From: an uncultured Alphaproteobacteria bacterium
Lineage (GTDB): Bacteria > Pseudomonadota > Alphaproteobacteria > Micavibrionales > Micavibrionaceae
Reading direction: 5' to 3'
Assembly: GCA_937934135.1 (NCBI GenBank)
Contig: CALHAW010000010.1
Location: forward strand, 1 to 39,560
Length of the DNA stretch: 39,560 nucleotides
A program made the position numbers and the translations under genes. Below the pieces are notes generated by a model, which had not been told where the DNA came from, did not search any database, and was given only the letters and a program-made list of their open reading frames with translations. Shown here piece by piece: positions 1-39,340 of this stretch (positions are counted from its first letter, which is position 1; the number at the start of each line of letters is the position of its first letter).

Positions 1-56
1 TGTGGCGCGGCGGCGGCTTCTGGACTAATCGGCACTTGCTTCTGGATGAAATAAAT
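1..56 (+). other. Right-end-type transposase binding region with two tandem sites
   Basis: Two copies of the pattern CGGC-N4-GCTTCTGGA lie at 8..24 and 30..46, in the same orientation and exactly 22 bases apart. Mu has two adjacent MuA sites (R1, R2) of about 22 bp at this end. The window opens with TG, the terminal dinucleotide of Mu-family elements. The last prophage gene stops at 57, so this stretch is noncoding. Site assignment is inference from geometry and from recurrence of the same pattern at the other end. Confidence 0.6.
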
Positions 57-389
57 TTACTGACAATAAGCCTTGCCTAGCTGTTTAGGTGATGCGGTGG
101 CCATGCTGGCCTTATCCCACGCCGTGACCGCTATAAACTCACCCTGTGGCCGTCCAGCTTCATTCAAGACCAGACATAGATAAGAGGCAAAGCCATCGCG
201 GCTGGTGCCATCATCATTCATTGACACCCAAAGGCTTTCTTCCTGCGACCAGGTTGCTTCATGGACCTTCTGTTCAGCCGTGGCCAGTTCTAACGCCTTG
301 GTGCGCCAGTCAGCCTGGGCGGATGCCGTTGTGATAGCCTGGGCGGTGATGATGGTGGTAAGGGCAAGGGCGTGAAGTGACAATTTCAT
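57..389 (-). CDS. Small exported protein of unknown function
   Basis: Codes for 110 residues. The first 24 or so form a typical Sec signal peptide (MKLSLHALALTTIITAQAIT then ASA just before the mature chain), so the product is probably periplasmic. The mature part is polar, with two cysteines (around residues 72 and 109) that could form a disulphide. I recognise no family. The start is preceded by AAACAGGA, a leader shared with several other genes of this prophage. It is the last gene before the end sites and sits in the terminal cargo block, so it is more likely an accessory gene than a virion part. Confidence 0.75.
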   Translation of the reverse strand: MKLSLHALALTTIITAQAITTASAQADWRTKALELATAEQKVHEATWSQEESLWVSMNDDGTSRDGFASYLCLVLNEAGRPQGEFIAVTAWDKASMATASPKQLGKAYCQ

Positions 390-426
390 GATGGTGTCCT
401 GTTTGTGTTAGGAGCTATTTAAAGCA

Positions 427-687
427 TTAGCCCTGAATTTTATCAATGAATTCTTCGCAAGACTTAGATAGGGATATTATTAAAAAACAAAACAGAACTA
501 ATGGCCAAGCAAAAATGGAAGTCAATAAAGCTGTCCATTTGATATCAAATTCCCCGCCGTTTTTTTTATAAATTATCATAACGACTATAAAAAACAACGT
601 CATGCAAACCACGCCAATGCTATATATATAGATCGGTTTTAATGCATCATACTGCCAATACTCAACAATCAAATCACTATAACCCAT
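427..687 (-). CDS. Small membrane protein, two transmembrane segments
   Basis: Codes for 86 residues with hydrophobic stretches at about 19-40 and 51-74 separated by a short polar loop (KKNGGEFDIK), so a two-pass inner-membrane protein is expected. No family is recognised. The gene is clearly more AT-rich than its neighbours, with runs of AAA/TTT codons, which suggests recent acquisition. It follows the adenine methyltransferase by 12 bases and may be co-transcribed with it. A role in exclusion or lysis is possible, but nothing in the sequence shows it. Confidence 0.65.
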   Translation of the reverse strand: MGYSDLIVEYWQYDALKPIYIYSIGVVCMTLFFIVVMIIYKKNGGEFDIKWTALLTSIFAWPLVLFCFLIISLSKSCEEFIDKIQG

Positions 688-699
688 GGTCTTATTTCC

Positions 700-1398
700 C
701 TATTTTTGGCTTGTTAAAACTTCCATGATCGCCAGCCGTTCAAGGCGTGGCATCTGTTCAAACTTGGATTGGAAGCGGTTCTTCTTGCGCTTGATGCGCT
801 CACGTTCGCGGTAGTTTTCACCAAGATGCGAATAGTCATGAAGCCTGTTTGGCGGCTCAAAATTCATCCAAAGGCTTTCATCCACCAAGCCTTGGCGGGT
901 CGTTGTCTGGTAGTCGATGCGGTGGAATTCAGACAAATATTCATCATAGATTGCGCTTCTATAGCCTGAAATCATCACCATACTGGGACGTTCACAAACC
1001 ACGGTTAGAAGCTTTATGTGGTCCAAATCACTCATTTCAAAGTCGTAAAGCTCACCGCCTTTGCGGGTTGAAAGCACATAAGGCGGGTCTAAGTAGATCA
1101 ATGTTTTTGGGTTTTCGATTAACGGCTGGTCACTAGAAAAGTCACAAAGTTGCGGAAGTGTTTCCAGGGCATCGCCTTCCAGGAAGACTGCGCCAAGGTG
1201 CCTGCCTTTGCAAAGTTTCATACACAAATCCAAAGCGTCTTTTGACTTATCAATAGCAACGTTGTGTTTGGCTGGTCGCTTATTACGTAGGACGGCACCA
1301 GAACCGCAAAAGCCTTCAATATAAGCGTCATGTGGTGGCATATGATTGATTATGCGCTGATACACGCCAGAACCATTCTTGCCGCCTGGATAGGTCAT
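700..1398 (-). CDS. D12-class DNA adenine N6-methyltransferase (Dam-like)
   Basis: Codes for 232 residues. It has the N-terminal PGGK signature (residues 4-7), the S-adenosylmethionine loop GFCGSGA (29-35) and the catalytic DPPY (104-107), in the order of D12/Dam-type enzymes. It should transfer a methyl group to the N6 of adenine in a short target that I cannot predict. Its ATG overlaps the stop of the upstream DnaA-like gene. Position matters: Mu keeps its DNA-modification gene mom at this same end, so this enzyme may likewise protect phage DNA from host restriction. No endonuclease partner is visible nearby, which fits a solitary methyltransferase. Confidence 0.92.
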   Translation of the reverse strand: MTYPGGKNGSGVYQRIINHMPPHDAYIEGFCGSGAVLRNKRPAKHNVAIDKSKDALDLCMKLCKGRHLGAVFLEGDALETLPQLCDFSSDQPLIENPKTLIYLDPPYVLSTRKGGELYDFEMSDLDHIKLLTVVCERPSMVMISGYRSAIYDEYLSEFHRIDYQTTTRQGLVDESLWMNFEPPNRLHDYSHLGENYRERERIKRKKNRFQSKFEQMPRLERLAIMEVLTSQK

Positions 1399-1898
1399 TT
1401 TAAAGCTCTAAAATGAGTTGCCGCCATACCCGCCATAGCCACAACTGCGTCACGGGTTTTTTGGCTCATTGCGTCCCATTCACCTGACTTCACAATCATG
1501 ATGTCCGCCTGGTCATGAACGCCACTAAGTGCCGCCAATTCATCCATCTTCACATCAAAGGAAGTTAGGTCGCGTAACACTTCAATAGCGCAACAAGCTT
1601 GGCTAACGCTGGTTCTATACGTATCAAAATATTCGGCCACATCAGCCATTCGGACTGACCATTCAACATGCGCTAAATACATGACAATTTTTCTTGCCCT
1701 AGTAACTTGCGCAAGTTGGCAAGACACGTCTTTGATGGCTTCTAGGTTTTGATTTTGATGACAACCAACCAGCAAAACCAAAGCGTCAATAATGCGTTTG
1801 CAATCTGATTTTGAGTTGCGGCCGACACCACCATTCTTGGTGGTATCGGATTCAACCATCGCACGTTTTGGCGATGCGATTGGAACAAAGGCTTTCAT
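1395..1898 (-). CDS. Orphan DnaA domain IV-like helix-turn-helix protein
   Basis: Codes for 167 residues. The stretch from about 68 to 125 (RKIVMYLAHVEWS, then ADVAEYFDTYRTSVSQAC and a following LRD...FD) resembles the C-terminal DNA-binding domain of DnaA, in the diverged form common in alphaproteobacterial genomes. There is no AAA+ ATPase domain, so it can bind DNA but not act as an initiator alone. It overlaps the methyltransferase downstream (ATGA) and adjoins the 75-aa gene upstream. It is the second such protein here; the other is at 32146..32826 in the early region. The target could be a regulatory site for the terminal genes; that is speculation. Confidence 0.7.
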   Translation of the reverse strand: MKAFVPIASPKRAMVESDTTKNGGVGRNSKSDCKRIIDALVLLVGCHQNQNLEAIKDVSCQLAQVTRARKIVMYLAHVEWSVRMADVAEYFDTYRTSVSQACCAIEVLRDLTSFDVKMDELAALSGVHDQADIMIVKSGEWDAMSQKTRDAVVAMAGMAATHFRALK

Positions 1899-2125
1899 TA
1901 GTTCTTTTCCATCACCGCAATGGTTTGGAATAAAGTGAAAGCACCTGCAATTTTCTTCACAAGGAAGGTGTCAAATTTGCCCGTATAAGGCACGTTCTTC
2001 TTGGCTTTAGATTTCCACTGTGAAGGGATGAATTGCGCCAATGTCCATTCACCATCTTTGATGTTTGGTTCCATCACATCAGCAGTGCCAAGGACTTCTT
2101 TTTTTTCGTTTAAAATGGTGTTCAT
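1898..2125 (-). CDS. Hypothetical protein, 75 aa
   Basis: Soluble, basic, with no cysteine and no evident motif; residues 26-45 hold a W..AQFIP..WK pattern followed by a lysine cluster. I recognise no family. The ATG has a strong leader with AAACAGGAAA upstream, and its last base is shared with the start of the DnaA-like gene, so the two are probably translated together. It is likely part of a terminal operon with the DnaA-like protein and the methyltransferase. Confidence 0.65.
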   Translation of the reverse strand: MNTILNEKKEVLGTADVMEPNIKDGEWTLAQFIPSQWKSKAKKNVPYTGKFDTFLVKKIAGAFTLFQTIAVMEKN

Positions 2126-2159
2126 AATCTAAGTCTTTCCTGTTTGTTTTCGGGTTGGT

Positions 2160-2705
2160 TTAACTGTTGCAAGTGCCTTTGATGGCCTTGGCAATTCGGG
2201 TGTGAATTTCGGGTACCTGGTCCATGACAATATGCGGGTAGCCATTAAGCTTTTTATTCGTCAGATTTCCGCTAAATTCATGTGTGGGCTGTAACGGGCC
2301 AAAGGGCGGTTGATACCAGTTTAAGGCTTCAAAAACGTTGGGTGAAACATAAGGGCTTCCCACTGGGTCGATAGTTGCCAGGACACAAACGGAAATGCCA
2401 TTTTCACCAAGTGCAAAAGCCATCCGCTTGGCGGTGATGCAACCTGCTGAATGACAGACCAGGGCAACTGTCTTCTGGCGCGATTTAATGATGGTCTGAA
2501 GCACCGTGCGGCCCTTCCAGTGAGGCTGAACCATAACCTTGTGACCTGATGCACTTAAACGGGTTCCTAGCGTGTCCAGACCAGTGGAAGTGACAACACC
2601 AAACATGCCGCGAAAAGCATAAACATCAACAGGCGATGGAAGCGGTGAAACGACTTGCGGCGCGAGTAGCAGGAAGGCAAAAATTGATATTGAAAAAAGT
2701 CGCAT
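2160..2705 (-). CDS. Exported alpha/beta-hydrolase (esterase or lipase-like)
   Basis: Codes for 181 residues beginning with a hydrophobic signal segment (about 1-22). The nucleophile elbow reads LVCHSAGC with Ser86; Asp113 in ATIDPVGSP and His158 in GYPHIV are placed to complete a Ser-Asp-His triad. The usual GxSxG is changed to CxSxC, which is uncommon. The fold and triad indicate ester or amide hydrolysis outside the cytoplasm; the substrate is not evident. It lies in the cargo block beyond the tail genes, so it may be a lysogenic conversion gene, or it may help envelope breakdown at lysis. Signal plus triad make it a confident hydrolase; the role is open. Confidence 0.75.
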   Translation of the reverse strand: MRLFSISIFAFLLLAPQVVSPLPSPVDVYAFRGMFGVVTSTGLDTLGTRLSASGHKVMVQPHWKGRTVLQTIIKSRQKTVALVCHSAGCITAKRMAFALGENGISVCVLATIDPVGSPYVSPNVFEALNWYQPPFGPLQPTHEFSGNLTNKKLNGYPHIVMDQVPEIHTRIAKAIKGTCNS

Positions 2706-2720
2706 TGGATTGGCCTTTCT

Positions 2721-3005
2721 TTAGCAAAATTCAGCGATGTTGGGTGTGCGCCATAGGTGGCGATAATTACCGCGATTAATTAAATCGGTTTGGGCTGGAT
2801 AAACTTCCACGCAAGTGACGTTCTCACCAAAGAAATCATTTTTGATGGCCTGCATTGTGTCCCATGTGACGTTGCCGTCATGCTCAATTTCAAGCCAGAA
2901 ATCTTTTGCCGTCCAACACACATCAATGACGTTTGGATATTTGTCTTTCTTGTCGCCATGTTCAGCACAATAAGCGGCTTTTGCATCTGCTACTTTCTGG
3001 TTCAT
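2721..3005 (-). CDS. Small phage protein, DUF7694-like
   Basis: Codes for 94 residues from the ATG at 3005, which overlaps the upstream stop as ATGA; a longer reading frame upstream is less likely. The C-terminal half (TWDTMQAIKNDFFGENV, CVEVYP, RHLWR) matches a pattern I recall in small phage proteins grouped as DUF7694, with no known function. It is translationally coupled to the DUF1353 gene. The family name is from memory and needs a profile search. Confidence 0.65.
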   Translation of the reverse strand: MNQKVADAKAAYCAEHGDKKDKYPNVIDVCWTAKDFWLEIEHDGNVTWDTMQAIKNDFFGENVTCVEVYPAQTDLINRGNYRHLWRTPNIAEFC

Positions 3006-3385
3006 TTGGAAACCGCCTTTCTGCGCTTCCAGGCAGTCCAAACCAGCGTGGTGGTGAATAGTGTCCAAGCAAACGTTTTGGATGCACCACGGGCAATGGC
3101 CGCACGTCTAAACTCTGAAGAGGCAAAGGCTACATCATGGCCACGTTTAAGCAGTTCATCATGAACAAGAGCCGCCAAAAGAATATCGCGGTTGTGTGGG
3201 TCTAAAAGCCATTCAAGTGAACGTGGGACTGAAATATCAAACCGCGTTCCCTTTTCAATTTCCAAAACCCAACCACTTCCTTTTGTGCCGATTTCCCAGC
3301 ACAAAGGGTGATGCGTTTTATAAAGCTTCTTGGTGTCCCTTACTGGGCTAAAGCTTTGAAATTGAGAGAATGAAACGGGTGACAT
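3002..3385 (-). CDS. DUF1353 family protein
   Basis: Codes for 127 residues. It shows the DUF1353 layout: an N-terminal strand region, GTRFDISVP, then a helix with LVHDELL around residue 80 and a hydrophobic C-terminal helix ending in a basic tail (WKRRK). DUF1353 proteins are common next to phage tail genes; their function is unknown. The HDELL segment recalls a metal-binding HxxxH or HE pattern, but I see no complete metalloprotease motif. It begins 3 bases after the tail fibre accessory gene and overlaps the next gene by 4 bases, so it is probably late-expressed. Confidence 0.8.
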   Translation of the reverse strand: MSPVSFSQFQSFSPVRDTKKLYKTHHPLCWEIGTKGSGWVLEIEKGTRFDISVPRSLEWLLDPHNRDILLAALVHDELLKRGHDVAFASSEFRRAAIARGASKTFAWTLFTTTLVWTAWKRRKAVSK

Positions 3386-3388
3386 TTT

Positions 3389-4081
3389 TTAGATATCCCA
3401 GCCTGATGTTGCCGCCGCCAAAACCGCCTGCTGGTCACCTGATTGAATGGCAAAACCAATAGCCGCCTGTTTAGCTTCCAGAAGGTCCGTGACAGCCTTG
3501 ATAGCTTCAACAGTGCCATCCGTGGCATCAATCAGCGCAGTGGCCCTGGTGCGAACACCAGCGGCAAGATGAGGCAACATACCCGTGATGGTAGCCGCCG
3601 CAATGATGCCTTCCGCAACATCTTTCAATGGTGCTTGTTCAATGGCCGCTTGCAAAGAAAGGCCAGGTGCATCTTCAAGGTTTTCACTGGCCATGAAAGC
3701 TTTTGCTTCAGGCAAAAATAACGGCCAGCCCTGTTGTTCGGTTTGAGTGTATTTGGCTAATAAAGAATTCTTAAACCCGTCAATATTAATTCTTATTAGT
3801 TCTTTAGCTTTTTGTTTACGATTATCACCTGCATCAGTTAAATAAATCTCCCAATCCTTTTGCTTCGGAGCTTTAGATTTGGGTGGTGGAGTTTCTTTTT
3901 TCTCACCAGTAGGATTACCATCTTGATCGATAACATCTTCAAAGCTACTCACAAGAATTTCATTAAGTAATGAGACAGTAACTTCATCACCATTTCTGGC
4001 GATAGAAAAATCGTTGTGGCCTAAGTGTTTTTCAACGGCTGAATTTATTTCACTTGTTGTATATTCTGATATATTAGACAT
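3389..4081 (-). CDS. Tail fibre accessory or assembly protein
   Basis: Codes for 230 residues from the ATG at 4081, chosen because GGAG lies 7 bases upstream; an upstream TTG is possible. The N-terminal 60 residues are acidic and variable, residues 65-80 are a KKETPPPKSKAPK linker, and the C-terminal half is alanine-rich and helical. Its place directly after the fibre gene is where fibre chaperones lie, but I do not see a clear tail fibre assembly (Tfa) domain. The start overlaps the fibre stop by 8 bases. The N-terminal half is AT-rich like the fibre C-terminus, so the two may be exchanged as one cassette. Confidence 0.65.
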   Translation of the reverse strand: MSNISEYTTSEINSAVEKHLGHNDFSIARNGDEVTVSLLNEILVSSFEDVIDQDGNPTGEKKETPPPKSKAPKQKDWEIYLTDAGDNRKQKAKELIRINIDGFKNSLLAKYTQTEQQGWPLFLPEAKAFMASENLEDAPGLSLQAAIEQAPLKDVAEGIIAAATITGMLPHLAAGVRTRATALIDATDGTVEAIKAVTDLLEAKQAAIGFAIQSGDQQAVLAAATSGWDI

Positions 4082-8040: not shown

Positions 8041-8074
8041 GAACCTGTTTTAAGGGCTAACACCAACCAAAAGA

Positions 8075-20481: not shown

Positions 20482-20715
20482 TTACCCCCTGTCAGCCTTT
20501 TTCTTTTTCACTGATACATCAGCAATTCTTTGCATTCTAAATTTGCAATTACTAAGCGGCCTATATGCCTTAGTTCCCTTTGGAAAAAGAAATCCTGTTT
20601 CGGCGCAAAAAAACGACTTTCGAGTTTTGCATTTACTCCAAAGACCATTGAAGACCCCTGAAGAATTAGAAACCACCATCAATCCATCATTAGGAAATTT
20701 AACACTACGTATCAT
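20482..20715 (-). CDS. Small cysteine-containing protein following the MuF-nuclease fusion
   Basis: Codes for 77 residues, basic at the C-terminus (KKKKADRG). Residues 28-60 show WSKCKTRKSFFCAETGFLFPKGTKAYRP, with a C-x7-C pair and a third cysteine at about 57. This is reminiscent of small metal-binding phage proteins but not a clear zinc knuckle. Its start overlaps the stop of the large fusion gene (ATGA), so it is made with it. It could be a partner or inhibitor of the C-terminal nuclease-like domain; no sequence evidence shows this. AT-richer than neighbours. Confidence 0.65.
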   Translation of the reverse strand: MIRSVKFPNDGLMVVSNSSGVFNGLWSKCKTRKSFFCAETGFLFPKGTKAYRPLSNCKFRMQRIADVSVKKKKADRG

Positions 20716-23609
20716 TTAATCGGCCTTTTATAGACCAGCTTGCCACCGCGTCTTTTATTAATCTGGTTCACATCCGTTTTCACACTGTCTTTTTTCAAAG
20801 GTTGAAAAGCAGTCTTACCAGTCCATACATCCTGGAACAATTCAAAGATCGCCAGCAAACCAGTTTTTGGGTCAGCTTTAATATAACGGCGGTCAATCAC
20901 CTTTTCAGTTCCACCACCCTGGGCGCTCGGAATTGCGCGGTCAACCACACCAATCCAGATTTCATCAGGGTCACGGATAGCTTCAGCAAGTTGGGCGGCA
21001 TGTACTTCACGGCCACGCTTTAATGATTTCAGATTGCCACGGCCATCACGGAATAATTCATCTGACACCAGAACGTTTCCACCTGCCTTGTCTTTGAACA
21101 AAACTGACTGGCCAAGCTTGGCACCAAAGACATTCAAAAACTTGCCAACATAAAATTCCGCGTCTTTACCCGTTGCAAGCTTTTTTTGCTTGAAGGCTTT
21201 GCCGTTAGCAACCAGGTCCGCAATAGGAACAACATCATCAATCTGGAATGCAAGGTTTGCTTTTTGCCCTTCAATGGCAGATGGAACCAAGCCACGTTGC
21301 CAGAAGTCTCCTGGTGCATAATCCCAACCGAAATCTATGCCTTGCGGTTTTTCAATCATCTTGCCTGTTGTCTTATCCAAATAAGGCTCTTGCAGGGTTG
21401 CTGGTGATGTGTCTGGCCCTGACTTGCCCAGGCGTTTAAGATCGCGCAGGGAAAGCGTTCTAACGCCACACGAACACATCCAGCCATTAGGCGGGAAATG
21501 AATTTGCCACCAAGGGTCATCATGTTTCAAAACAATACCGTCCCAGTCACGGTGTTGACGGCGTGGGATTTTAGGCAAACGGGTCGCGCCATGTTTATAT
21601 TGCCAATAAGGTCTGGCCTTGATGACGGCTGGGTCACGCATTTGTTGCAACCGTCCTGCCATGTAAGATGTGCGGATGTTGGTTTCAAAAATAACCTTAC
21701 TACGCCAGCCGCGTTCGCCTTTATATGACCAGCCGTGGCGGGCAACAATATCATCAAAATCTTTGCGGAAAGTTTCAAGCGTGGTGCCATCATTTATGGC
21801 TTTGCCAATTACTGTTTGAAAGTCTTTGACCAGCTCACGGTTTTTTGCGCCCGCAACAACAAAAGCACGGTCATGGTCACCACGGAAAACATCAGTCCAT
21901 TCTTTGGAAGGGCGTGGTTCCTTCTGATTGAAAAATTCAACCTGTTCCTTGAATGGCTGGTTGAAGACATCAACATCAGCGAAGTCTTCACCACCTTCAT
22001 CCATTTCTTCAACAACCGCATCACGGCCCGTTAGTGCTGAAGCTTGGAAGGCTTGTTCAAACATATTAGCAAGTTCAGTTTCATCCCAACTAGCAAATGC
22101 TTCAAGAACCAAAACACGGGCTTGTTCTAAATCACCGGCTTTTTCTATGCTGGCACGAATATCATCAATTGCCCTGGTAATAATTGGGCTGGTAATGTCA
22201 TCAAGCTGACTGGCAAGGATTTCAATTGGTTCTTCTGGTTCTGCAAATTCGGGCGTGATGATATTGCTCTTTACATCATAACGCGGGTCTTTTTTTTTAG
22301 GGTTGGATGGTTCTGCTTGTTGTTGTGCAAACTGGTTTCTATTTGCCACCAATGCGGTCAACACATCTTCATCAAGATCACGCGGGCTAAATGCCTGAAT
22401 ATAATTTCTGGCATCATCATCATTTTCAAACTTTGAAGATATCGCAACAATAGCGGTGATTGCCTCGTTTTCATCTGTTGAAGCTTTGGCTTTCTTTTCG
22501 CGAACTTCAGCTTGTTCTTTTTCGTTAGACGGGCGAACACGCCAAACCTTTGGAACCTTCGCACCAGGAAAGTTATATTCAGTCATCCACTTGAAAAGTG
22601 TTTCACTTTGCGTGTCAGATAATAGATCGCCATCCGCATCAACCAACAATTGCAAGATGTCTGCATGGGTTTGTGATGCCGCCTTTGAACCAACATCACC
22701 AATGTCAGTGGTCAGCGTTTCACCAAGCGTGGCGATTGAAATTTGCTTATCCCAATATGAACACCAATCTTCATAACCTGCATTGCCTGCGCGTGTAGCT
22801 TCAAGCAATTCAACTTCAGTCCCCATTGGAACGGTTACGGCTGAATTTTGGATTACGCTGGCAAGAATTTCAAGCAACATATTTTGTTGACCATCATCAA
22901 GGCCGAATGGTGTCTTGCCAATGACGGTTGGTCCTGCAAACTTTTCAAGGAAGGTCATCCAAAAAGCAACGCCTTCGCGCTTGAATAACACGGGCCAGAA
23001 TAAGCGAGTACCAAGACCAAGGCCATATGGGTTGTTACCTTTAACGCCATGGCGGTGAGTGATGAACTTGCGTTCTGGTAATTGCAAACCATCATTCATA
23101 TTACCAAGAGTTAGAAGCCTAAGCTTCCATTCCAAATCAAAAACAAAGCGGCGCTGGTCATGGCTGACGATTTTATCAGGAACAATATAATTCCCGTCAC
23201 GCTTCCAAACTATTTCACTAACTGAAAAGCCCTTTAAGGTTGCGTCCAGCATATCTTCACAAATGCGGTCATATGGCAAAGTCTTCAGTTGCGCTTCAAT
23301 GAATTCAGCCGCATCCAAATCAATCTGGTCTTCACCACCTGGTTCAACAGTCCATTCACGGGCAATCAAAACCTTCTTACGTTTTTGAAGAACAGCCCAG
23401 GCGTGGGTGTCACGCTCTATTTCATCATAGATTTTTAAACCCTTGCCACCGCCGCGCTGGATTAGCGTGTCATCAGTGGGTTGCATGGTGTTGGAATAAA
23501 ACGGGATGGTGATGTCAGATCGCGCATCCGCAATAACAACGTTTGAACCTTTAGGAAGGTTTTTGCGGGCCGCTTTCAAATCTTTGTTTTTACTCTTAGG
23601 GGTTTTCAT
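20712..23609 (-). CDS. Portal (DUF935)-MuF-PBECR nuclease fusion protein
   Basis: Codes for 965 residues, carrying what Mu splits into gp29 and gp30. Residues 1-430 form a DUF935 portal (VLQKRKKVLIAREWTVEPGG, KGFSVSEIVWK, NPYGLGLGTRLFWPVLFKREG, KFAGPTVIGK). Residues about 555-735 form the MuF head morphogenesis domain (FETNIRTSYMAGR, then HFPPNGWMCSCGVR at 704-717). Residues about 805-950 resemble a PBECR domain, a barnase/EndoU/RelE-like nuclease fold often attached to MuF. The portal is the dodecameric DNA channel; MuF proteins are injected in some phages. The reading frame is continuous with no stop or weak joint. Confidence 0.88.
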   Translation of the reverse strand: MKTPKSKNKDLKAARKNLPKGSNVVIADARSDITIPFYSNTMQPTDDTLIQRGGGKGLKIYDEIERDTHAWAVLQKRKKVLIAREWTVEPGGEDQIDLDAAEFIEAQLKTLPYDRICEDMLDATLKGFSVSEIVWKRDGNYIVPDKIVSHDQRRFVFDLEWKLRLLTLGNMNDGLQLPERKFITHRHGVKGNNPYGLGLGTRLFWPVLFKREGVAFWMTFLEKFAGPTVIGKTPFGLDDGQQNMLLEILASVIQNSAVTVPMGTEVELLEATRAGNAGYEDWCSYWDKQISIATLGETLTTDIGDVGSKAASQTHADILQLLVDADGDLLSDTQSETLFKWMTEYNFPGAKVPKVWRVRPSNEKEQAEVREKKAKASTDENEAITAIVAISSKFENDDDARNYIQAFSPRDLDEDVLTALVANRNQFAQQQAEPSNPKKKDPRYDVKSNIITPEFAEPEEPIEILASQLDDITSPIITRAIDDIRASIEKAGDLEQARVLVLEAFASWDETELANMFEQAFQASALTGRDAVVEEMDEGGEDFADVDVFNQPFKEQVEFFNQKEPRPSKEWTDVFRGDHDRAFVVAGAKNRELVKDFQTVIGKAINDGTTLETFRKDFDDIVARHGWSYKGERGWRSKVIFETNIRTSYMAGRLQQMRDPAVIKARPYWQYKHGATRLPKIPRRQHRDWDGIVLKHDDPWWQIHFPPNGWMCSCGVRTLSLRDLKRLGKSGPDTSPATLQEPYLDKTTGKMIEKPQGIDFGWDYAPGDFWQRGLVPSAIEGQKANLAFQIDDVVPIADLVANGKAFKQKKLATGKDAEFYVGKFLNVFGAKLGQSVLFKDKAGGNVLVSDELFRDGRGNLKSLKRGREVHAAQLAEAIRDPDEIWIGVVDRAIPSAQGGGTEKVIDRRYIKADPKTGLLAIFELFQDVWTGKTAFQPLKKDSVKTDVNQINKRRGGKLVYKRPIK

Positions 23610-30819: not shown

Positions 30820-31341
30820 TTAGTCTTCACCACAACCGCGCCCAACCTGGGTGCTGTTTCCTGTTTCATCAAAGCTTGTGAAAATCTTCCAATGCCGCCA
30901 ACCTTGCGGGCAATGGAAACCCCAATCGCGAATGCGTGGGCCAGTGATAAACAAAGTTTGGCAAGTGCTTTTGTCGCGCACTTCAAGACGGTGTGCTGAC
31001 TTTGCGCCACGACAAACAAGATTGCCTTGCTTCAGATACCTATTTGTTTTAGGGCGCTGGCCAATTGGAATAGAACCAAACCCTTTGGCGGGCATAACTT
31101 CCAACATGCCACCATCAAGGATAAAGCTGATATTCCACCATGGATGGTCATGAAGCGCACGGTCATCATCAGACCTTAAAATTCTATGCAAATAGATATT
31201 AAAGAACTTGTTGCGTGGGATAATATACCAACGCAAAAGGTAAGGGTTTTCAGCGTCACCAATTTGCAAGTTTGGTGGCGTGGTGATGCGTTTTGCTGTT
31301 GCCTTTTTTAGCAGGCTGGCAAGCCATTTAATTCTAATCAT
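30820..31341 (-). CDS. Cupin-like phage protein
   Basis: Codes for 173 residues. RALHDHPWWNISFILDGGMLEVMP (about 62-85) followed by RGAKSAHRLEVRD gives the HxH and later H of a cupin barrel, and WRHWKIF lies near the end. Such proteins are frequent in phage early regions with no proven function. It overlaps the zinc-finger gene stop. Confidence 0.75.
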   Translation of the reverse strand: MIRIKWLASLLKKATAKRITTPPNLQIGDAENPYLLRWYIIPRNKFFNIYLHRILRSDDDRALHDHPWWNISFILDGGMLEVMPAKGFGSIPIGQRPKTNRYLKQGNLVCRGAKSAHRLEVRDKSTCQTLFITGPRIRDWGFHCPQGWRHWKIFTSFDETGNSTQVGRGCGED

Positions 31342-31505: not shown

Positions 31506-31516
31506 TTGCCCAACCC

Positions 31517-33399: not shown

Positions 33400-34001
33400 T
33401 TGACCACCTCACGCGTGTTTGGGTCATAGATCGCTTTTTCGCGAATTCTAACGATTGGTGATAGTTCGCCAGTGTCATTGGTAAGTTTGAAAAGCTTATA
33501 TCCATTGGACCCTGGGCGGGTTCCTGCTTGACGGCGCGTTAACGTTAACAGATAACCCGTTTTTTTTAATTGACGCAGATATTGCCTTGCATTGTTTTCA
33601 GTGTGTGCGGTTTGCTCACCGTCATTCAAGGCAATCATCAGCAAATCATTAAGACTAAAGCACTTGCTTAATCCGCCAACGTTATAACTGCGCATTGCAT
33701 TCCAAAGGCGTTGTTTGAACGCTGTTGGTTTTGGTTTTTTGGCACCTGTTCGCGGGCCTTTTTTGCCGCTCTTGATTGGTTCACCACTATCACGCTGTTC
33801 TTGGCCTAATTTGGTCAAACGATAGTGGCCACGTTCTGAACGTTCAATAAGACCTGAAATCACCATCCGCCCAACAGCGCTTTTGACGCTATCGAGATTT
33901 TGAGAAACAGCCGCATTAAAATCCGTTAGGGTTAACACTTCTGATGTTTCGGAAAATGAATTTAAGATTTCCATTTGTGTGGTTGCTTGCCCTGACATCA
34001 A
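33393..34001 (-). CDS. Winged-helix DNA-binding protein, two HTH regions
   Basis: Codes for 202 residues. The first HTH region is about 20-68 (NLDSVKSAVGRMVISGLIERSERGHYRLT). The second is at about 95-155 (LNDLLMIALNDGEQTAHTENNARQYLRQLKKTGYLLTL). A basic linker (KKGPRTGAKKPKPTA) joins them. It overlaps the MuB-like gene by 4 bases, so it may work with transposition or replication. Confidence 0.75.
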   Translation of the reverse strand: MMSGQATTQMEILNSFSETSEVLTLTDFNAAVSQNLDSVKSAVGRMVISGLIERSERGHYRLTKLGQEQRDSGEPIKSGKKGPRTGAKKPKPTAFKQRLWNAMRSYNVGGLSKCFSLNDLLMIALNDGEQTAHTENNARQYLRQLKKTGYLLTLTRRQAGTRPGSNGYKLFKLTNDTGELSPIVRIREKAIYDPNTREVVKW

Positions 34002-34768
34002 ACCACCTCTGGAACTTTGATTTCAACACCAGTCTGGCGGTCATTCATCAAGAATTGCCCAGCCATATCCGCCATTGTAAACGGTTGGTCATCAGGCTTT
34101 GCATTACGAAAACCAAACCGCTCAATGGATGCAATTGCTTCCTTGATTTCACGGTTAAAGCCTTTTGATGTTTTATGGACAAACTCCAATAAATCATCTG
34201 CAACTGGGATTTCAGAAAGGCCATCAACCAAGGCGCGAATGTCTGCTTTTGTCGCAACATTAAATTCAACATATTGGGACACGCGGGACATCACTTGCGG
34301 AAACTTCGCAAGGTTATGGCGGATGCGCCCCATGCCAACAAAGATGATGACCACTTCCAAGCTGTCTGAAAGATCGCGCATGGTTTCCATGCACTCGACA
34401 TTGCGACTGATGAAATCAGCTTCATCAATAACAATTGCAAAGGTTTGTTGGTCAATTGTGGCGCGGTCTATGCGCTGGCCAATAGCGCCCAACGCCATCT
34501 TATACTTATCTTCAAAACGGTGTGGTGGCGACATCCGTAATTCTTCCAGCAATTCGTTCATCATCCAAGATGCCCGCCATTGCTTTTTGGCGCGAAGGTA
34601 AAGGCATTGGTTCTTAGCAGTCCAGTGTTGAAGTGTTGTGGTCTTACCCAATCCAGGCTTCCCGTCCACCACCATCAAGCTTGCTTCACCAGCACCACGC
34701 CTGTTCACAACCTGCAAAGCTTTGTGAAAGGTTTTAACGTTGCTTGTCTCGACAAATTTGCTTTTCAT
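33998..34768 (-). CDS. MuB-like transposition ATPase (AAA)
   Basis: Codes for 256 residues. Walker A is GKPGLGKTT (36-44), Walker B is IVIDEAD (112-118), and a sensor-like VVIIFVGMG follows at about 143. The C-terminal helices resemble the MuB DNA-binding region. MuB delivers target DNA to the transposase and enforces target immunity. It is shorter than Mu MuB (about 312) and begins only about 30 residues before the P-loop, so the N-terminal HTH domain is missing. An AAACAGGAAA leader is present. Confidence 0.92.
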   Translation of the reverse strand: MKSKFVETSNVKTFHKALQVVNRRGAGEASLMVVDGKPGLGKTTTLQHWTAKNQCLYLRAKKQWRASWMMNELLEELRMSPPHRFEDKYKMALGAIGQRIDRATIDQQTFAIVIDEADFISRNVECMETMRDLSDSLEVVIIFVGMGRIRHNLAKFPQVMSRVSQYVEFNVATKADIRALVDGLSEIPVADDLLEFVHKTSKGFNREIKEAIASIERFGFRNAKPDDQPFTMADMAGQFLMNDRQTGVEIKVPEVV

Positions 34769-34798
34769 TGTTATGTATTTCCTGTTTTGTTGTTTAGT

Positions 34799-36976
34799 TT
34801 AGGCAACCGATTGGGATAGTTTTCTAAGGGCTTCCAAATCGACACCTTCAAGACGCAGATACTCACGGTCGCTTTTGCTGTTAAGTAATTCACGCAAAAG
34901 CGACCTATCCATTGCAGTGACTTCCCCTTCATTTTCGCAACACCATTTTGCAAGACTTGCATCATCTGAAAATGCGGGCCTTCCATTAATGATTGTGCGC
35001 TTCTGAATTTTTGCCGCGCCGCCTTGGCCAATGGTTTGTGGCGCGGCTTCAACTGGGTCATGGAGGAGGTTATCGCCAGTTGAATTATTAATGATTTCCA
35101 TTGGTTTATTTGCGGATTGGTCAAGGAAGCGATTTGGGTTTGCTTCAGCTTCAACTTCATCCATTTTGTTTTGCAGGCGACCCATGCGGGCTTTGGTTCT
35201 TTTTTCCATAGCGGCACGTTCAGCCGTAAGCGGCACATAGCGAGTTTTGTTACCTTCAAAGATAGCAACTGCAATCAATCGGCCTGGGCGTTCCTCGCCA
35301 TCAACCACGTCAATTTCACGGCACCAAACTTTTCCGCCATCATGGATGTCAAAACCAACCAAAATGTCAGTGCCGTGATGTGCTTCAAGATCAATGTGAA
35401 AATAACTGTTTGTAAATATTTCAACCATGGCGCGGTTGGTGCGGCGGCGTACATATTGACGGAATAAATCATCCGCTTCACCTGGGTGAACACCAACAGC
35501 TTCAAAACCATCAGAAACACATTTTTCCCACGCTTCATTTGGCGACTGCAAAACTTTACGGCCTGATTGGTCTTTGATGGTTAAACCAGCATGGGCTTTG
35601 TCGTTGTAAACTTTGATTTCATACTTCATTTGTTCAATGAAATCTGGCCAAGATAAAAGCAGATTAGATGTGCCTGTTGTCTTGATATCTTTGCGGGTTA
35701 TTTTGAAAGCCTTATGGCGGGCTTCGCGGTCCATATCCACGCCAATGTATGTTGGCAACTTTCTGGCCATTGGATTGTAAACAGACCCGTTAAAACGCTC
35801 GATGATGCCACGCGCTTGCGAGTTATACGGTAGCGAGTGCATTTTGGTTGTCCCAAAACGGGCGCAGAAACCAGTTAGATCATTATCAAGTTTGTCATTC
35901 TTAAAGCCTGGGCCACGGTCAACATAAAAGATGGCTGGGATGCCGTATTCCATGCAAGACATTCTCAAGGCATCCAGAACGCCGTCACTATTTTCAGCCA
36001 AGCCAATTGACCACCCAACACACACCCGTGTTGCCACATCCAAAATGGATGTTATTTCTGGGCGGAATGGACGGCCATGAATTGGGTGCTGAACTTCCGC
36101 ATCAAAAGTTTTTCCGTCCGCTGTATAGACAGAAGTTGGAAGCAATCCTGATGTATCACGCACAACGTAAGCGTGACGGGCTTTAATGGCCAAAGCGCCT
36201 TCACGCCCACGGAAACGCGCTTGCGTCCCCTTGGACTTATCCAGCTTCTTTAAACAGCGGCGAACTTGGTCATATGATGGCGGGTTATTGGTGCGCGTAT
36301 CGTATTTATAATTATCCAAAGCTTCCGTGATAGTTGGCGCTTGCGGTCTGGCATAATACGCCATGAATTTTGGGAACCATTCTGGAAAACTGTGTGTGTC
36401 ACGGGTGGCCTTTGGGGCAAGAGCAGACACGCCACCTGCCTTGTGTAGCTTCAACCATTCATAAAGTGTTGCGCGGGAAATTGTGCGGACTTTTCCAGCG
36501 CGGTCATTTGCTTCCCGTGCAAGCTTTGAAAGCTGAATATCTGAAACCGTCATTTCAAGAACAGCGGCAACAGCTTCGCCTTTGGTGCTTCCTTTTCCTA
36601 CATAATATTGATTGACAGCATTGACGATTGAAGCACGGGCTTCCATCACCATTCTTTGACGTGCTGACAAGCTGGTTGAAGCAAGTTTTTCAAGGGCGTT
36701 TTCTTGCGTCACCATTGCTGTTTTTGCATCTGCTAAAGCTTGCGCTTTTTGCTCATCTGCAATCATTGCTGAAACCATAAATTCTGGTAACAGACTGAAG
36801 TGGTATTCATGACCGCCGCCGCGCCCAGAACGCACCCGTGAAAGTGGCGAAGATGCCCACCCCTCACGGACAATCAAATCCTGGACCCTGCGCTTGGTTT
36901 GTGGCATGGCAGAAACGTCAAGACGCTTTGCTAATTCCGCAATCTCCAAAGCGGTGAAATACTCTTGACGGCGCAT
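34799..36976 (-). CDS. MuA-like DDE transposase
   Basis: Codes for 725 residues. The N-terminus (EYFTALEIAELAKRLDVSAMPQTKRRVQDLIVREGW) is the Mu-type winged-helix domain. It is followed by HTH regions around 105-185 for the end sites. The rve catalytic core has D287 (TADGKTFD), D353 (YVDRGPGF) and E393 (RGIIERFN). A Mu C-terminal barrel lies at about 490-590. The acidic/basic tail may contact the ATPase. All three catalytic residues are intact, so the element could be active. It shares one base with the ParB-like stop. Confidence 0.95.
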   Translation of the reverse strand: MRRQEYFTALEIAELAKRLDVSAMPQTKRRVQDLIVREGWASSPLSRVRSGRGGGHEYHFSLLPEFMVSAMIADEQKAQALADAKTAMVTQENALEKLASTSLSARQRMVMEARASIVNAVNQYYVGKGSTKGEAVAAVLEMTVSDIQLSKLAREANDRAGKVRTISRATLYEWLKLHKAGGVSALAPKATRDTHSFPEWFPKFMAYYARPQAPTITEALDNYKYDTRTNNPPSYDQVRRCLKKLDKSKGTQARFRGREGALAIKARHAYVVRDTSGLLPTSVYTADGKTFDAEVQHPIHGRPFRPEITSILDVATRVCVGWSIGLAENSDGVLDALRMSCMEYGIPAIFYVDRGPGFKNDKLDNDLTGFCARFGTTKMHSLPYNSQARGIIERFNGSVYNPMARKLPTYIGVDMDREARHKAFKITRKDIKTTGTSNLLLSWPDFIEQMKYEIKVYNDKAHAGLTIKDQSGRKVLQSPNEAWEKCVSDGFEAVGVHPGEADDLFRQYVRRRTNRAMVEIFTNSYFHIDLEAHHGTDILVGFDIHDGGKVWCREIDVVDGEERPGRLIAVAIFEGNKTRYVPLTAERAAMEKRTKARMGRLQNKMDEVEAEANPNRFLDQSANKPMEIINNSTGDNLLHDPVEAAPQTIGQGGAAKIQKRTIINGRPAFSDDASLAKWCCENEGEVTAMDRSLLRELLNSKSDREYLRLEGVDLEALRKLSQSVA

Positions 36977-37827
36977 TAGACTTCGCCACGCTCGTTAAAC
37001 CATGCGCGAACGCGTTCAAGCTGGGATGCCATCACCCTGTCAAAAGTGTCATCATCCAGCTTTTTAAATGATGAAATAACAGCGCCAACTTTCTTTTCTT
37101 GTGACGTTGCAAGACGACCCTGTTCAATGAACTCTATTGCATCAGAAATACTGGCAATTTTCTGTTCTGGGTCCATAACTATTTTAAGGATTTTTGCCTG
37201 CATGGCGGCACTGGTTGAAGCAAGTGATTGAAGCCCTGCTTGGTGGTCTGCTAGCCATGTTCCATCAACTGCTTGACGGGTAGCAACTGACAAGTCTTTC
37301 CAAAGCTTAACAGCAAGTTCAATTGAGCGTGAAGATACGCCCAGTTTTTTGGCGGTGTCTTGGCTAAACGAAAATATTTCGTTTTGATTTTCTTGCGCTT
37401 CTTTGCTTTTACGGTCACCGCCTTTTTTAGTTTCAGGGTGCGCAGTCTCATAAGCTTTTTTCAACTCAAAAAGATGGTGCGCACGGTCAAGGACATTTAG
37501 GTCACGGCGGCCAATGTTTTCCATGACCTCATGGATGCGGTAATGGGCGGCGGCTTGGTCGCTTTCAACAACCAAAACCTTGACGGTCATTTCAGTCCAA
37601 TCAATTGACTTAGCACCTTCTAAACGGTGCAAGCCTGCAATAAGAATATATTCCCCTTTGTTGTCACCTGGGCGAACTTCAATTTCAACCTTATTGCCGT
37701 GTTCAAGAAACATCTGGCCAAGTGCTTTTGCCCATACTGGGTCAAGCGAACGTGCGCGGTCTTCAGGAATAATGATTGATGAAATCGGGATGGTGACTAG
37801 ATGGGTTTTGATGTTTTCAGGGTTCAC
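36976..37827 (-). CDS. ParB/Spo0J N-terminal domain protein
   Basis: Codes for 283 residues. Typical ParB motifs: PISSIIIPEDRAR, the GLHRLEGAK box (about 70) and VMENIGRRDLNVLDRA (about 101). A KorB/HTH-like region is suggested at FSQDTAKKLGVSSRSIELAVKLW (about 154-176). ParB family proteins bind CTP at the GxHR/ENxxR motifs and clamp DNA. No ParA partner is present. It is next to the transposase gene, so it may assist in transposition or regulate early genes rather than segregate DNA. Confidence 0.87.
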   Translation of the reverse strand: MNPENIKTHLVTIPISSIIIPEDRARSLDPVWAKALGQMFLEHGNKVEIEVRPGDNKGEYILIAGLHRLEGAKSIDWTEMTVKVLVVESDQAAAHYRIHEVMENIGRRDLNVLDRAHHLFELKKAYETAHPETKKGGDRKSKEAQENQNEIFSFSQDTAKKLGVSSRSIELAVKLWKDLSVATRQAVDGTWLADHQAGLQSLASTSAAMQAKILKIVMDPEQKIASISDAIEFIEQGRLATSQEKKVGAVISSFKKLDDDTFDRVMASQLERVRAWFNERGEV

Positions 37828-37874
37828 GTTTTGAATTCCTATTTAGAAAATTAAGTGGATTGATTTGGGTGGTT

Positions 37875-38006
37875 TTATTGAACCAACAAAGCGAGTTGGT
37901 GAGCGGCAGACATTTCACTAAGGAAAAGTGCAAACGCACAAATAAAACCTGTAACCGCCAAGGCGGCGCAAATGTCTTGGAGCCAGTGCTTCAACCAACG
38001 CTTCAT
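37875..38006 (-). CDS. Small single-pass membrane peptide, 43 aa
   Basis: A short frame (MKRWLKHWLQDICAALAVTG, then FICAFALFLSEM) with one hydrophobic helix at about 12-30 and a basic N-terminus. The ATG overlaps the stop of the upstream 83-aa gene as ATGA, the coupling style used throughout this prophage; that is the main reason to accept it. No family is recognised. It lies before the ParB-like gene, among the first early products. Confidence 0.5.
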   Translation of the reverse strand: MKRWLKHWLQDICAALAVTGFICAFALFLSEMSAAHQLALLVQ

Positions 38007-38254
38007 GATGCCACCCGCATGTCTAATTGACGCGCTGGGCGTTCAAGTCCTTCAGGCCAATCCAAATTGGCTGGCCAGTTTGCCGCAAACCATTCGGTGG
38101 CACGGGTTGTTGTTGTATGAAAGCAATTCTTGCCATCATCAAATCTTGAGAAGACATCACCACGGCCAAAGATGCGGGCTGATATAGCCCAATGGGTAAT
38201 GCCTTCATGTTCAGCAAGGGTGTTGGCTAAGTAGGAAAGTTCTTTAGGTGTCAT
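38003..38254 (-). CDS. First early gene: small HTH-like protein (Ner/Cro position)
   Basis: Codes for 83 residues. ITHWAISARIFGRGDVFSRFDDGKNCFHTTTTRATEWFAANWP resembles a group of small alphaproteobacterial phage proteins with a degenerate HTH and a C-terminal NWP...WP pattern. It is the first gene after the early promoter, where Mu has Ner and other phages Cro. A role as an early-promoter regulator is inferred from position. An AGGTGTC lies just before the ATG region. Confidence 0.7.
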   Translation of the reverse strand: MTPKELSYLANTLAEHEGITHWAISARIFGRGDVFSRFDDGKNCFHTTTTRATEWFAANWPANLDWPEGLERPARQLDMRVAS

Positions 38255-38289
38255 GATAGCTTCCAGAATTAATTATTTCGTCTGAAAGC

Positions 38290-38318
38290 ATATAAAAGCT
38301 ATATATAGCCAATGTCAA
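38290..38318 (-). promoter_or_regulatory. Early promoter, near-consensus
   Basis: On the minus strand TTGACA (38318..38313) and TTATAT (38295..38290) are separated by exactly 17 bases. It reads into the early genes. The 14-bp operator at 38297..38310 fills the spacer, so bound repressor would block it. Confidence 0.8.
38297..38310. promoter_or_regulatory. Repressor operator 1
   Basis: AGCTATATATAGCC, containing a perfect 12-bp palindrome GCTATATATAGC, within the spacer of the early promoter. It matches operator 2 at 13 of 14 bases in inverted orientation, with centres 23 bp apart (about two helical turns). A weaker AGC...AGCT copy overlaps at 38287..38300. Confidence 0.7.
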
Positions 38319-38319
38319 G

Positions 38320-38333
38320 GGCTAGATATAGCT
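38320..38333. promoter_or_regulatory. Repressor operator 2
   Basis: GGCTAGATATAGCT, the inverse of operator 1 with one change. It lies upstream of the -35 of the early promoter and toward the repressor gene, where it could support cooperative binding or control of the repressor's own promoter. Confidence 0.7.
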
Positions 38334-38361
38334 AATTTAACCTTAATTGTAATTTTAGTTT

Positions 38362-38382
38362 GTCAGCCCGCAGGGCGATGAC
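38362..38382. other. Stem-loop just before the repressor start
   Basis: GTCA-GCCC and GGGC-(GA)-TGAC arms around a 3-base GCA turn, 14 bases before the repressor ATG. The repressor has no clear ribosome site, so the hairpin may influence its translation. Confidence 0.4.
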
Positions 38383-38396
38383 TTATTCAATCCGTT

Positions 38397-39038
38397 ATGA
38401 CGGGAATAATTAAAATCATTGAGAAGGCATTGAAACTTAGGAAGCTAACTGCAACCAAGGCATCAAAACTTGCGACTGGAAAAGACGGTCTGATTAAAAA
38501 CATAAAGGCTGGCCATTCACCTTCATTTGAAAACATTGAAAAGCTGTTTGCCGTCCTTGGTGTCAATCTGACTTATTCTTTTGAAGACACCATGGAACCT
38601 GCAATTGGGCATGTGCCTTTGCTTGGCTATATATCCGCTGGCGGTGATGACCTGCCTGATGACACATCAGTCAGTTTTTTCCCAGACAATGAAAGCAACG
38701 AACAAACAAACATGCCGCCTGGTGCCTACCTGCAAAGGCGGGGCAATATTTTTTCATTGCAGGTTAAAGGCTCGTCAATGCGCCCTATTTATTCGGATGG
38801 TGATATCCTCTTCATGTACAAGGATGACCCAGCGCGTGGCGACCTTAAAAAGCTGATTGGCACTTCTTGCGCCGTCACACTGGAAGATGGTGAAGTTTAT
38901 GTGAAGACACTGCGGCGGCCTGATAGCGGTAAACTTGGTGAATGGAACCTTGAGAGCTTAAACCCAGTTTGGCCAATGATGACAAACCAACGACTGCTGG
39001 AAGCTTTGCCAGTGCGGCACGTCACACATCCAGTTTGA
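38397..39038 (+). CDS. Phage repressor, S24 (LexA/CI-like) family
   Basis: Codes for 213 residues on the strand opposite all other prophage genes. The N-terminal 60 residues form an HTH (KLTATKASKLATGKDGLIKNIKAG). The self-cleavage site is Ala81-Gly82 (YISAGGDD), the nucleophile is Ser127 (VKGSSMRP) and the general base is Lys170 (VYVKTLRR). RecA-stimulated cleavage after DNA damage is therefore expected. Mu's own c repressor is of a different type, so induction here should be SOS-linked. No strong ribosome site is visible before the ATG. Confidence 0.92.
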   Translation: MTGIIKIIEKALKLRKLTATKASKLATGKDGLIKNIKAGHSPSFENIEKLFAVLGVNLTYSFEDTMEPAIGHVPLLGYISAGGDDLPDDTSVSFFPDNESNEQTNMPPGAYLQRRGNIFSLQVKGSSMRPIYSDGDILFMYKDDPARGDLKKLIGTSCAVTLEDGEVYVKTLRRPDSGKLGEWNLESLNPVWPMMTNQRLLEALPVRHVTHPV

Positions 39039-39139
39039 CTTAAACGAACGTCCCACTTCCTTCATTTAAGAAAAATGCACAACCAAGGCCAAACCCCTTG
39101 CTTATCAATGCATTCAGGTAAAATAGAAGCCGACCAATT

Positions 39140-39162
39140 AAGTGGGACGCAAAGACCCACTT
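39140..39162. other. Hairpin downstream of the repressor
   Basis: Perfect 7-base arms AAGTGGG and CCCACTT with a 9-base loop. It might end repressor transcription, but the U-tract after it is poor. The same AAGTGGGACG also pairs with CGTCCCACTT at 39049..39058. Confidence 0.45.
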
Positions 39163-39286
39163 CTTTCAAAATTTAAAATTTTTCGCTTTGGATTGATTAC
39201 CTGCTAAAATGGCCAGAACCCCATAAGAACGAACACTTTGCGCACATTTTCGGTGTTTTATGATAGGATTATAGTCCTTGCATGAT

Positions 39287-39303
39287 CGGCGGTTGCTTCT
39301 GGA
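39287..39303 (+). other. Transposase site matching the left-end consensus
   Basis: CGGCGGTTGCTTCTGGA fits CGGC-N4-GCTTCTGGA, the pattern of both left-end sites; TTGCTTCTGGAT is a 12-base exact match to the site at 30..46. It points outward, opposite to the adjacent terminal site. Confidence 0.6.
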
Positions 39304-39314
39304 TTTCTATTGTT

Positions 39315-39340
39315 CATCCAGAATAGGCAAATTTCACCCA
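39315..39340 (-). other. Prophage terminus (Mu-left type) with inner TTCTGGATGAA site
   Basis: Read inward on the minus strand this starts TG at 39340 and has ATTCTGGA beginning 16 bases in, exactly the offset of CTTCTGGA at the other end. TTCTGGATGAA is an 11-base match to 41..51 at the left. Other CA dinucleotides nearby (such as 39335..39336) do not give this offset match. Confidence 0.55.

What the first reader, a model, noticed from the sequence alone, without database searches (positions are those of the whole stretch)
1..39340. Both termini of the transposable prophage can be placed, with a shared MuA-type site pattern
The pattern CGGC-N4-GCTTCTGGA occurs at 8..24, 30..46 and 39287..39303, and an inverted TTCTGGATGAA at 39315..39325. 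At both ends TG is followed by a TTCTGGA core at offset 16-17. The 22-bp tandem spacing at the left copies the Mu R1/R2 layout. This gives a prophage of 39340 bp and a new site sequence, unlike the Mu consensus as I know it.
Basis: partly seen in the sequence, partly recalled or inferred. Interest (0 to 1): 0.8.

Follow-up and report, generated by a model that had tools for sequence, protein, structure and literature searches.

The report
Mu-like phage ends, corrected and decoded
This is a nearly ordinary Mu-like jumping phage whose right-hand end was placed 80 bases too far in; comparing its ends with those of its relatives points to two amino acids of the phage's transposase that appear to read the end sequence.

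Summary
The repeated site is real. CGGC-N4-GCTTCTGGA occurs exactly at 8, 30 and 39287; the inverted TTCTGGATGAA is at 39313..39323, not 39315. Position 1 is a true terminus. The other is 39420, not 39340. A profile of 36 relatives' genetic-left ends picks 39420 (28.6 bits); 39340 scores -18.4, with 1377 of 79,068 positions above it. The element is 39,420 bp and the predicted duplication GTTTA. That cannot be checked, because the window is a whole contig starting at base 1. The site is not new: RR1-B and RcapMu have the same kind of ends.

Following the sites led further. The inner half of the site varies between phages and covaries with two residues of one MuA helix: Arg169 with C23 in 61 of 62 phages, Arg173 with G21 in 62 of 62, over at least 19 and 13 changes on a tree (one phage left out of the count fits only the first). 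An alignment places them on R77 and R81 of CRISPR-transposon TnsB, reported to make base-specific contacts. My searches found no earlier report of this code.

The parts
1..17 (+). genetic-right terminus, TGTGGCGCGGCGGCGGC; contig also starts here
   Evidence: R-end profile of 17 relatives: position 1 is best (36.0 bits), next 39420 with 15.1
8..28 (+). transposase site R1 (core TTCTGGAC at offset 18-25)
30..50 (+). transposase site R2 (core TTCTGGAT at offset 40-47), 22 bp from R1
   Evidence: a core at offset 40 also in the 18 relatives listed
39287..39303 (+). L3-like inner site, inverted relative to L1 (offset 124 from 39420)
   Evidence: same inverted position (-125) in the closest relative L039 with its own core
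39313..39323 (-).
39393..39403 (-). terminal site L1, core TTCTGGACTAA at offset 18
39404..39420 (-). genetic-left terminus, read inward TGTGGGGGGGTGGTAGG
   Evidence: L-end profile of 36 relatives best at 39420, 28.6 bits
39421..39425 (.). predicted copy of the 5-bp target duplication (GTTTA); other copy not in the assembly
   Evidence: inference from 5-bp duplications in relatives
39421..39560 (+). host DNA: N-terminal part of a tyrosine-integrase gene, interrupted at about its 6th codon
   Evidence: homologues in 67 of 104 family genomes, own included; in the 11 best other matches homology starts between 39419 and 39434; start of the gene compared
34799..36976 (-). MuA-type DDE transposase, 725 aa
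36452..36481 (-). start of the proposed DNA-reading helix, MuA residues 166-175 ISRATLYEWL (A169, E173)
   Evidence: covariation with site core; helix 168-181 in the model
33998..34768 (-). MuB-like AAA+ ATPase
   Evidence: PF13401 above cut-off, PF05621 TniB just below; same place as DNA transposition protein in RR1-B
36976..37827 (-). ParB-like protein; RR1-B and RcapMu also have one upstream of the transposase
38397..39038 (+). S24-peptidase repressor, next to the genetic-left end
   Evidence: PF00717

Best explanation
The window is one contig holding what looks like a complete genome of a Mu-type transposable phage of the RR1-B/RcapMu group, from 1 (genetic right end) to 39420 (genetic left end), plus 140 bp of host integrase gene. 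The transposase (34799-36976) binds L1, L2 and an inverted L3 at one end and R1 and R2 at the other, pairs the ends and inserts them with a 5-bp staggered cut. Each terminal site has two parts. The outer part is end-type specific (G-run at left, GCGC or similar at right). The inner 8-base core is phage specific and shared, or nearly so, by both ends. The core is read by a helix of the I-beta domain: Arg at 169 goes with C at core position 23, Arg at 173 with G at position 21. The window's transposase has Ala169 and Glu173 and its core is TTCTGGAC (T21, G23). Shown by computation: termini, sites, covariation. Inferred: that binding and cutting occur there, and the contact geometry.
For: Termini: profiles; L-end pattern in relatives with differing flanks; isolated phages RR1-B and RcapMu share the ends; among 12 same-contig L/R pairs 37-43 kb apart, exact 5-bp duplication in 8 (11 pairs, plus L039). 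Inner L sites: 45 within offset 30-330 against 13.6 expected, in 30 of 37 phages. Code: found in 36 phages; tested on new loci with a rule written beforehand: R169/C23 in 24 of 25, R173/G21 in 25 of 25, plus D3112 right for both. Tree made from the catalytic part only: independent pairs 12 of 13 and 10 of 10 (p 0.0005, 0.002). Best two of 19,899 residue-base pairs. Structural agreement with TnsB R77/R81.
Against: No duplication can be seen for this element, as the contig lacks its right flank. 4 of the 12 relative pairs lack an exact duplication (L041 4 of 5 bases; L060, L082 and the closest relative L039 none). 7 of 37 phages show no inner L site by the same scan. Exceptions to the code: L090 (Ser169 with C23); L068, left out of the first set for its odd core, has Glu173 with G21 if its core is in register. 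The 25 test rows depend on a terminus filter added after the rule was written; without it 28 of 32 and 30 of 32 non-duplicate rows fit (from the rows). In one of three cyanobacterial TnsB loci looked at, the apparent terminal site has T21 although the helix has Arg at the 173 place (L236). No third R site was seen.
Confidence: 0.87

Rival explanations
1. One reading: genetic-left terminus at 39340, with 39313..39323 as the terminal site and TTTAA as the duplication.
For: CA at the right place to end at 39340 and a TTCTGGA core at offset 18 from there (sequence).
Against: 39340 scores -18.4 bits with the L-end profile, 39420 scores 28.6. The bases 39341-39420 hold an L1 site identical in 11 bases to R1 and the G-run seen in relatives. 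Host integrase homology starts only at about 39419-39434.
Confidence: 0.02
2. The inner inverted pair at 39287-39323 is an operator or other regulatory palindrome rather than transposase L2/L3 sites.
For: Arms TTCTGGAT/ATCCAGAA form an inverted repeat with an 11-base spacer (sequence); it lies between the repressor gene and the end.
Against: The closest relative L039 keeps the two positions (+100, -125) but with its own transposase core, so the pair follows the transposase. Direct inner sites at about 100 and 143 occur in L046, L059, L061 and L064. D3112-group phages have L2/L3 at 93 and 124 (PMC4378225, passages).
Confidence: 0.12
3. The residue/base association is shared ancestry: helix and end sequence travel together in modules, without contact.
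For: Helix and left end sit in the same early region; crossed pairings also agree in part (about 8 of 13 and 8 of 10).
Against: At least 19 and 13 changes on a tree made from the other part of the protein; each residue fits its own base better than the other (12 of 13 and 10 of 10). Only these two residues, four apart on one helix, do so among 19,899 pairs. The R ends lie about 37-43 kb away and change with the L ends. TnsB's aligned arginines are reported to make base-specific contacts.
Confidence: 0.07
4. The contig is DNA from phage particles with a stretch of packaged host DNA, not an integrated prophage.
For: The contig breaks exactly at the right terminus, where packaged or inserted copies would have many different flanks.
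Against: One single 140-bp left flank; RcapMu and three P. aeruginosa phages of the D3112 group carry mostly 31-36 bp of host DNA at the left end (PMC5977238, passages), although 50-100 was reported for two others (PMC4378225, passages).
Confidence: 0.25

Closest known systems
Rhizobium phage RR1-B (NC_021557)
   Same: Transposase 41.6% over the whole length, similar gene order, tail-sheath gene, L end with core TTCTGGAC at offset 18, R end with cores at 18 and 40
   Different: Portal and MuF are separate genes in RR1-B, one fused ORF here; no inner L site found in RR1-B by the scan
Rhodobacter phage RcapMu (NC_016165)
   Same: Same L and R end types and 22-bp R1/R2 spacing; its record annotates attL1, attR1, attR2 as possible transposase repeats
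   Different: Core TTCCGGAC/TTTCGGAC; siphovirus-like (PMC5488378, passages), whereas a tail sheath gene is present here
Pseudomonas D3112-group phages
   Same: TGT ends, three L sites at 10, 93, 124 bp (PMC4378225, passages), close to 18/98/124 here; D3112 follows the same code
   Different: R sites at 4, 46, 93 with R1 inverted relative to R2/R3 in that group; two direct R sites 22 bp apart here
ShCAST TnsB (7svw, 8rdu) and phage Mu MuA (4fcy)
   Same: Fold match over model residues 103-600 (8rdu) and 103-574 (4fcy); helix 166-174 aligns with TnsB 74-82 and R77/R81
   Different: Authors of the TnsB structure doubted that I-beta adds much to end recognition (PMC9371665, section 9 read); the covariation here says that it does in this phage group

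Membership tests
Mu-type transposable phages (RR1-B/RcapMu group) | MuA-family DDE transposase with Mu DNA-binding domain | tested here: met
   PF09299 and PF02316 above cut-off; 41.6% to RR1-B; fold match to 4fcy and TnsB
Mu-type transposable phages (RR1-B/RcapMu group) | MuB-like AAA+ protein beside it | tested here: met
   PF13401 in 33998-34768
Mu-type transposable phages (RR1-B/RcapMu group) | TG...CA termini with phage-specific transposase sites | tested here: met
   binding itself not tested
Mu-type transposable phages (RR1-B/RcapMu group) | 5-bp target duplication | not testable with these tools
   Contig starts at the right terminus. In relatives exact in 8 of 12 same-contig pairs
Mu-type transposable phages (RR1-B/RcapMu group) | Mu-type head genes | tested here: met
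   Portal_Mu, Phage_Mu_F; major head protein, protease, terminase
D3112 group | R1 inverted relative to R2/R3, at 4, 46, 93 bp | tested here: not met
   Two direct R sites at offsets 18 and 40 against positions in PMC4378225
Phage Mu itself | Mu's own end-site sequence | tested here: not met
   First 190 bases of the Mu record hold no TTCTGGA core; transposase only remotely similar (hhalign 21% identity)

The most novel reading that the evidence does not exclude
MuA/TnsB-type transposases read the inner half of their end sites with a short helix code (Arg169 for C23, Arg173 for G21). The code holds from alphaproteobacterial phages to D3112 and perhaps to CRISPR-associated transposons. Phages switch it repeatedly, so that prophages in one cell do not mobilise each other: Martelella mediterranea carries two whose transposases are 94% identical in the catalytic part and follow different codes.
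Probability: 0.5. Interest if true: 0.75.

Novelty: new member of a known kind. Interest (0 to 1): 0.55.

Why it matters
The phage itself is an ordinary member of a known group, with its ends now placed by comparison. The wider result is a simple rule linking two residues of the transposase to two bases of its end sites. It suggests which part of the site each DNA-binding domain reads, gives a way to predict or check prophage ends from the protein (useful where the duplication is lost or the contig is cut), and offers a direct test of how transposing phages living in one cell keep their ends apart. It also bears on TnsB, where the role of this domain in end recognition was left open.

Tried and rejected
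Rejected: terminus 39340. Rejected: 'new site unlike any known'. The transposase alone against viral contigs found nothing; an alignment query did. Patterns on viral contigs gave 1 and 6 loci, which I did not follow. Own genome: only the window itself holds the right end and the integrase flank; the rest of the integrase was not found (besides the window one 82-residue, 33% match on another contig), so the other junction was not found. No transposase of this kind in the 9 same-genus genomes examined; matches in 9 of 193 genomes in all, own included.

A regression of DNA-binding-domain identity on core difference gave only a weak signal (correlation -0.30 for one part, 0.08 for the other); the per-residue view replaced it. 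Aligning phage Mu's MuA to the helix worked with MAFFT (Ser and Asp at the two places, no conflict with the rule) but hhalign placed that stretch differently, so Mu is not counted.

Cyanobacterial TnsB loci were an exploratory look, not a test. L233 fits both positions, L236 fits C23 only, L235 has no located terminus; L234 was fetched and not used.

Rows left out of counts. One search scanned 43 alphaproteobacterial loci; 33 with a usable L end went into and later. The ten left out: L048 (same end and protein as L047), L068 (G-run end, odd core; fits 169/23, not 173/21), and L045, L052, L058, L065, L069, L074, L086, L088 (no convincing end). The search for those ends used a consensus that included the core, so rare cores may be under-represented. 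In one search, 43 preset-rule candidates plus D3112 were examined: 10 duplicates with an accepted terminus were dropped; 8 with an unconvincing terminus (L084, L096, L167, L186, L200, L211, L225, L227) were dropped by a filter that does not use positions 21/23 but was added, once the ends had been seen. Of these 8, L200 is also a duplicate; of the other 7, 4 fit at 169 and 5 at 173 (one of them by a gap in the alignment), so unfiltered the counts would be 28 of 32 and 30 of 32. D3112 is counted apart because it falls outside the preset pattern. L224, a remote relative, is among the 25. 75 of 118 loci had no preset-pattern terminus. Five further exact duplications (L044, L049, L055, L075, L091) lie on split contigs or a shortened element and are left out of the 8 of 12, since they were recognised by the match itself. 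L/R contigs were paired by coordinates, not by accession. The right-end pattern required GCGC, so the uniformity of right ends is partly built in; L039's right end, found otherwise, reads TGTGGCTCGG.
Full report
Observation. The inverted TTCTGGATGAA is at 39313..39323, two bases from the stated place. The same listing shows what was missed: TTCTGGACTAA on the minus strand at 39393..39403, identical to the first left site at 18..28; these are the only two copies in the window. Read inward, 39420 gives TGTGGGGGGGTGGTAGG-TTCTGGACTAA and position 1 gives TGTGGCGCGGCGGCGGC-TTCTGGACTAA, the core at offset 18 in both.

Where the ends are. The window is a whole contig of 39,560 bases in an unnamed 1.72-Mb genome, so nothing precedes base 1. 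The transposase is closest, among the phage records searched, to those of RR1-B (41.6%), RcWaterboi and RcapMu. RR1-B and RcapMu end in TGTAGGGGGG... at the genetic left and TGT[AG]GCGCG... at the genetic right, with cores at offset 18, and at 18 and 40. RcapMu's record already annotates attL1, attR1 and attR2 as possible transposase repeats. A scan of genome contigs with four transposases gave 97 relatives, of which 80 were kept. In 43 alphaproteobacterial ones I looked for the left end: 33 had a usable one, 1.3 to 6.3 kb upstream of the transposase, with differing sequence before it. Right ends were sought by pattern in 29 genomes; 23 had a match, some of them plainly chance. Of 11 L/R pairs on one contig, rightly oriented and 37-43 kb apart, 8 are flanked by the same five bases, one by 4 of 5, two not; the closest relative, L039, whose right end was found separately, has no such match. 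So 8 of 12 exact, each 1 in 1024 by chance. The integrase homology of the right flank begins between 39419 and 39434 in the 11 best matches to other genomes, which fits a junction at 39420/39421 and not one at 39340.

Layout. Genetic left lies at the window's right, beside the repressor and the transposase. There are five sites: R1 (offset 18) and R2 (40) at the right end, L1 (18), L2 (98) and an inverted L3 (124) at the left. The closest relative, L039 (Hoeflea, 59% transposase identity), has inner sites at +100 and -125 with a different core, TTTGAGAC, while the outer part GATCGGCG of its L3 is the same. Other relatives have direct inner sites near 100 and 143 (L046, L059, L061, L064) or near 152 (L040-L044, L073). 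Over 37 phages 45 core-like sites lie at offsets 30-330 against 13.6 expected; 30 of 37 have at least one and 7 have none. The D3112 group has L sites at 10, 93 and 124 (PMC4378225, passages seen).

A reading code. In the 19 phages with both ends known, the window included, the first 10 bases differ between the two ends (G-run left, GCGC right; the latter partly built into the search), while the core is phage specific and the same or nearly so at L1, R1 and R2. Aligning 36 transposases showed that a helix (window residues 166-175) follows the core: Arg at 169 in 15 of 15 phages with C at position 23 and none of 21 with G; Arg at 173 in 9 of 9 with G at position 21 and none of 27 without. As this was seen after the fact, I wrote down a rule and applied it to loci not used so far, mostly beta- and gammaproteobacterial ones and new viral contigs. 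After removing duplicates and unconvincing termini (all listed under Tried and rejected), 24 of 25 and 25 of 25 fit, and D3112, outside the preset pattern, fits both; without the terminus filter 28 of 32 and 30 of 32. Pooled, 61 of 62 and 62 of 62; L068, left out at first, fits only the first position. On a tree of the catalytic part the two residues change at least 19 and 13 times; independent pairs agree 12 of 13 (one does not differ) and 10 of 10 (sign test p 0.0005 and 0.002), better than the crossed pairings (about 8 of 13 and 8 of 10). Among 19,899 residue-base combinations these two are the best, with 1 and 0 mismatches; the next distinct ones have 6. In Martelella mediterranea two prophages (L049, L075) have catalytic parts 94% identical, yet helices SRATVYEW and STRTVQRW and cores TTCTGGAC and TTTGACAC/TTTGGCAC.

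What is known. Mu-type ends, TGT termini, 22-bp sites and I-beta/I-gamma as end-binding domains are known (PMC4378225, PMC5977238, PMC3362531, passages). I found no report of the residue-base rule in the listings of searches; the library lacks most subscription papers, including the RcapMu and B3 genome papers, so this is weak evidence of novelty.

Verdict. Observation partly confirmed, one end right and one wrong. The element is a new member of a known phage group. The interest lies in the code, which is well supported by sequence and untested at the bench.

Noticed in passing
window 1 and 39421..39560: The contig begins exactly at the phage's right terminus and ends 140 bp beyond the left one. 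RcapMu and three D3112-group phages mostly carry 31-36 bp of host DNA at the left end of packaged DNA (PMC5977238, passages), so this favours, but does not prove, an integrated copy.
   Followed up: partly
window 20712..23609 (-): One 965-aa reading frame joins Mu-type portal (59-374), MuF (596-716) and a C-terminal PBECR2 nuclease-like domain (823-961); in RR1-B portal and MuF are separate genes.
   Followed up: no
window 30820..31341 (-): PHROG names this protein cysteine dioxygenase (phrog_4786) but Pfam finds nothing; RR1-B has a host nuclease inhibitor gene of similar size in its early region. The label may be wrong.
   Followed up: partly
window 39386..39559 (+): Insertion at about the sixth codon left the integrase gene open: a start codon inside the phage end reads in frame into it, giving a possible phage-host fusion protein.
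   Followed up: partly
L130 1501, 1578 and about 70 bases further in: The right end of the Rhizobium herbae prophage holds three right-end-like sequences in tandem with three different cores (TTCTGGAC, TTTGGCAC, TTTGGGAT), perhaps relics of earlier specificities or of other phages.
   Followed up: no
L044, L049, L055, L075, L091: Prophages apparently split over contigs or shortened (L091 spans 20 kb) that still show matching five-base flanks at both ends.
   Followed up: partly
L039 and L149: The closest relative has conserved sites at both ends, about 41.7 kb apart, but no matching five-base flanks, hinting at a later rearrangement.
   Followed up: no
window 38397..39038 (+): The repressor has an S24 peptidase domain, suggesting LexA-like self-cleavage and induction by DNA damage.
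   Followed up: no
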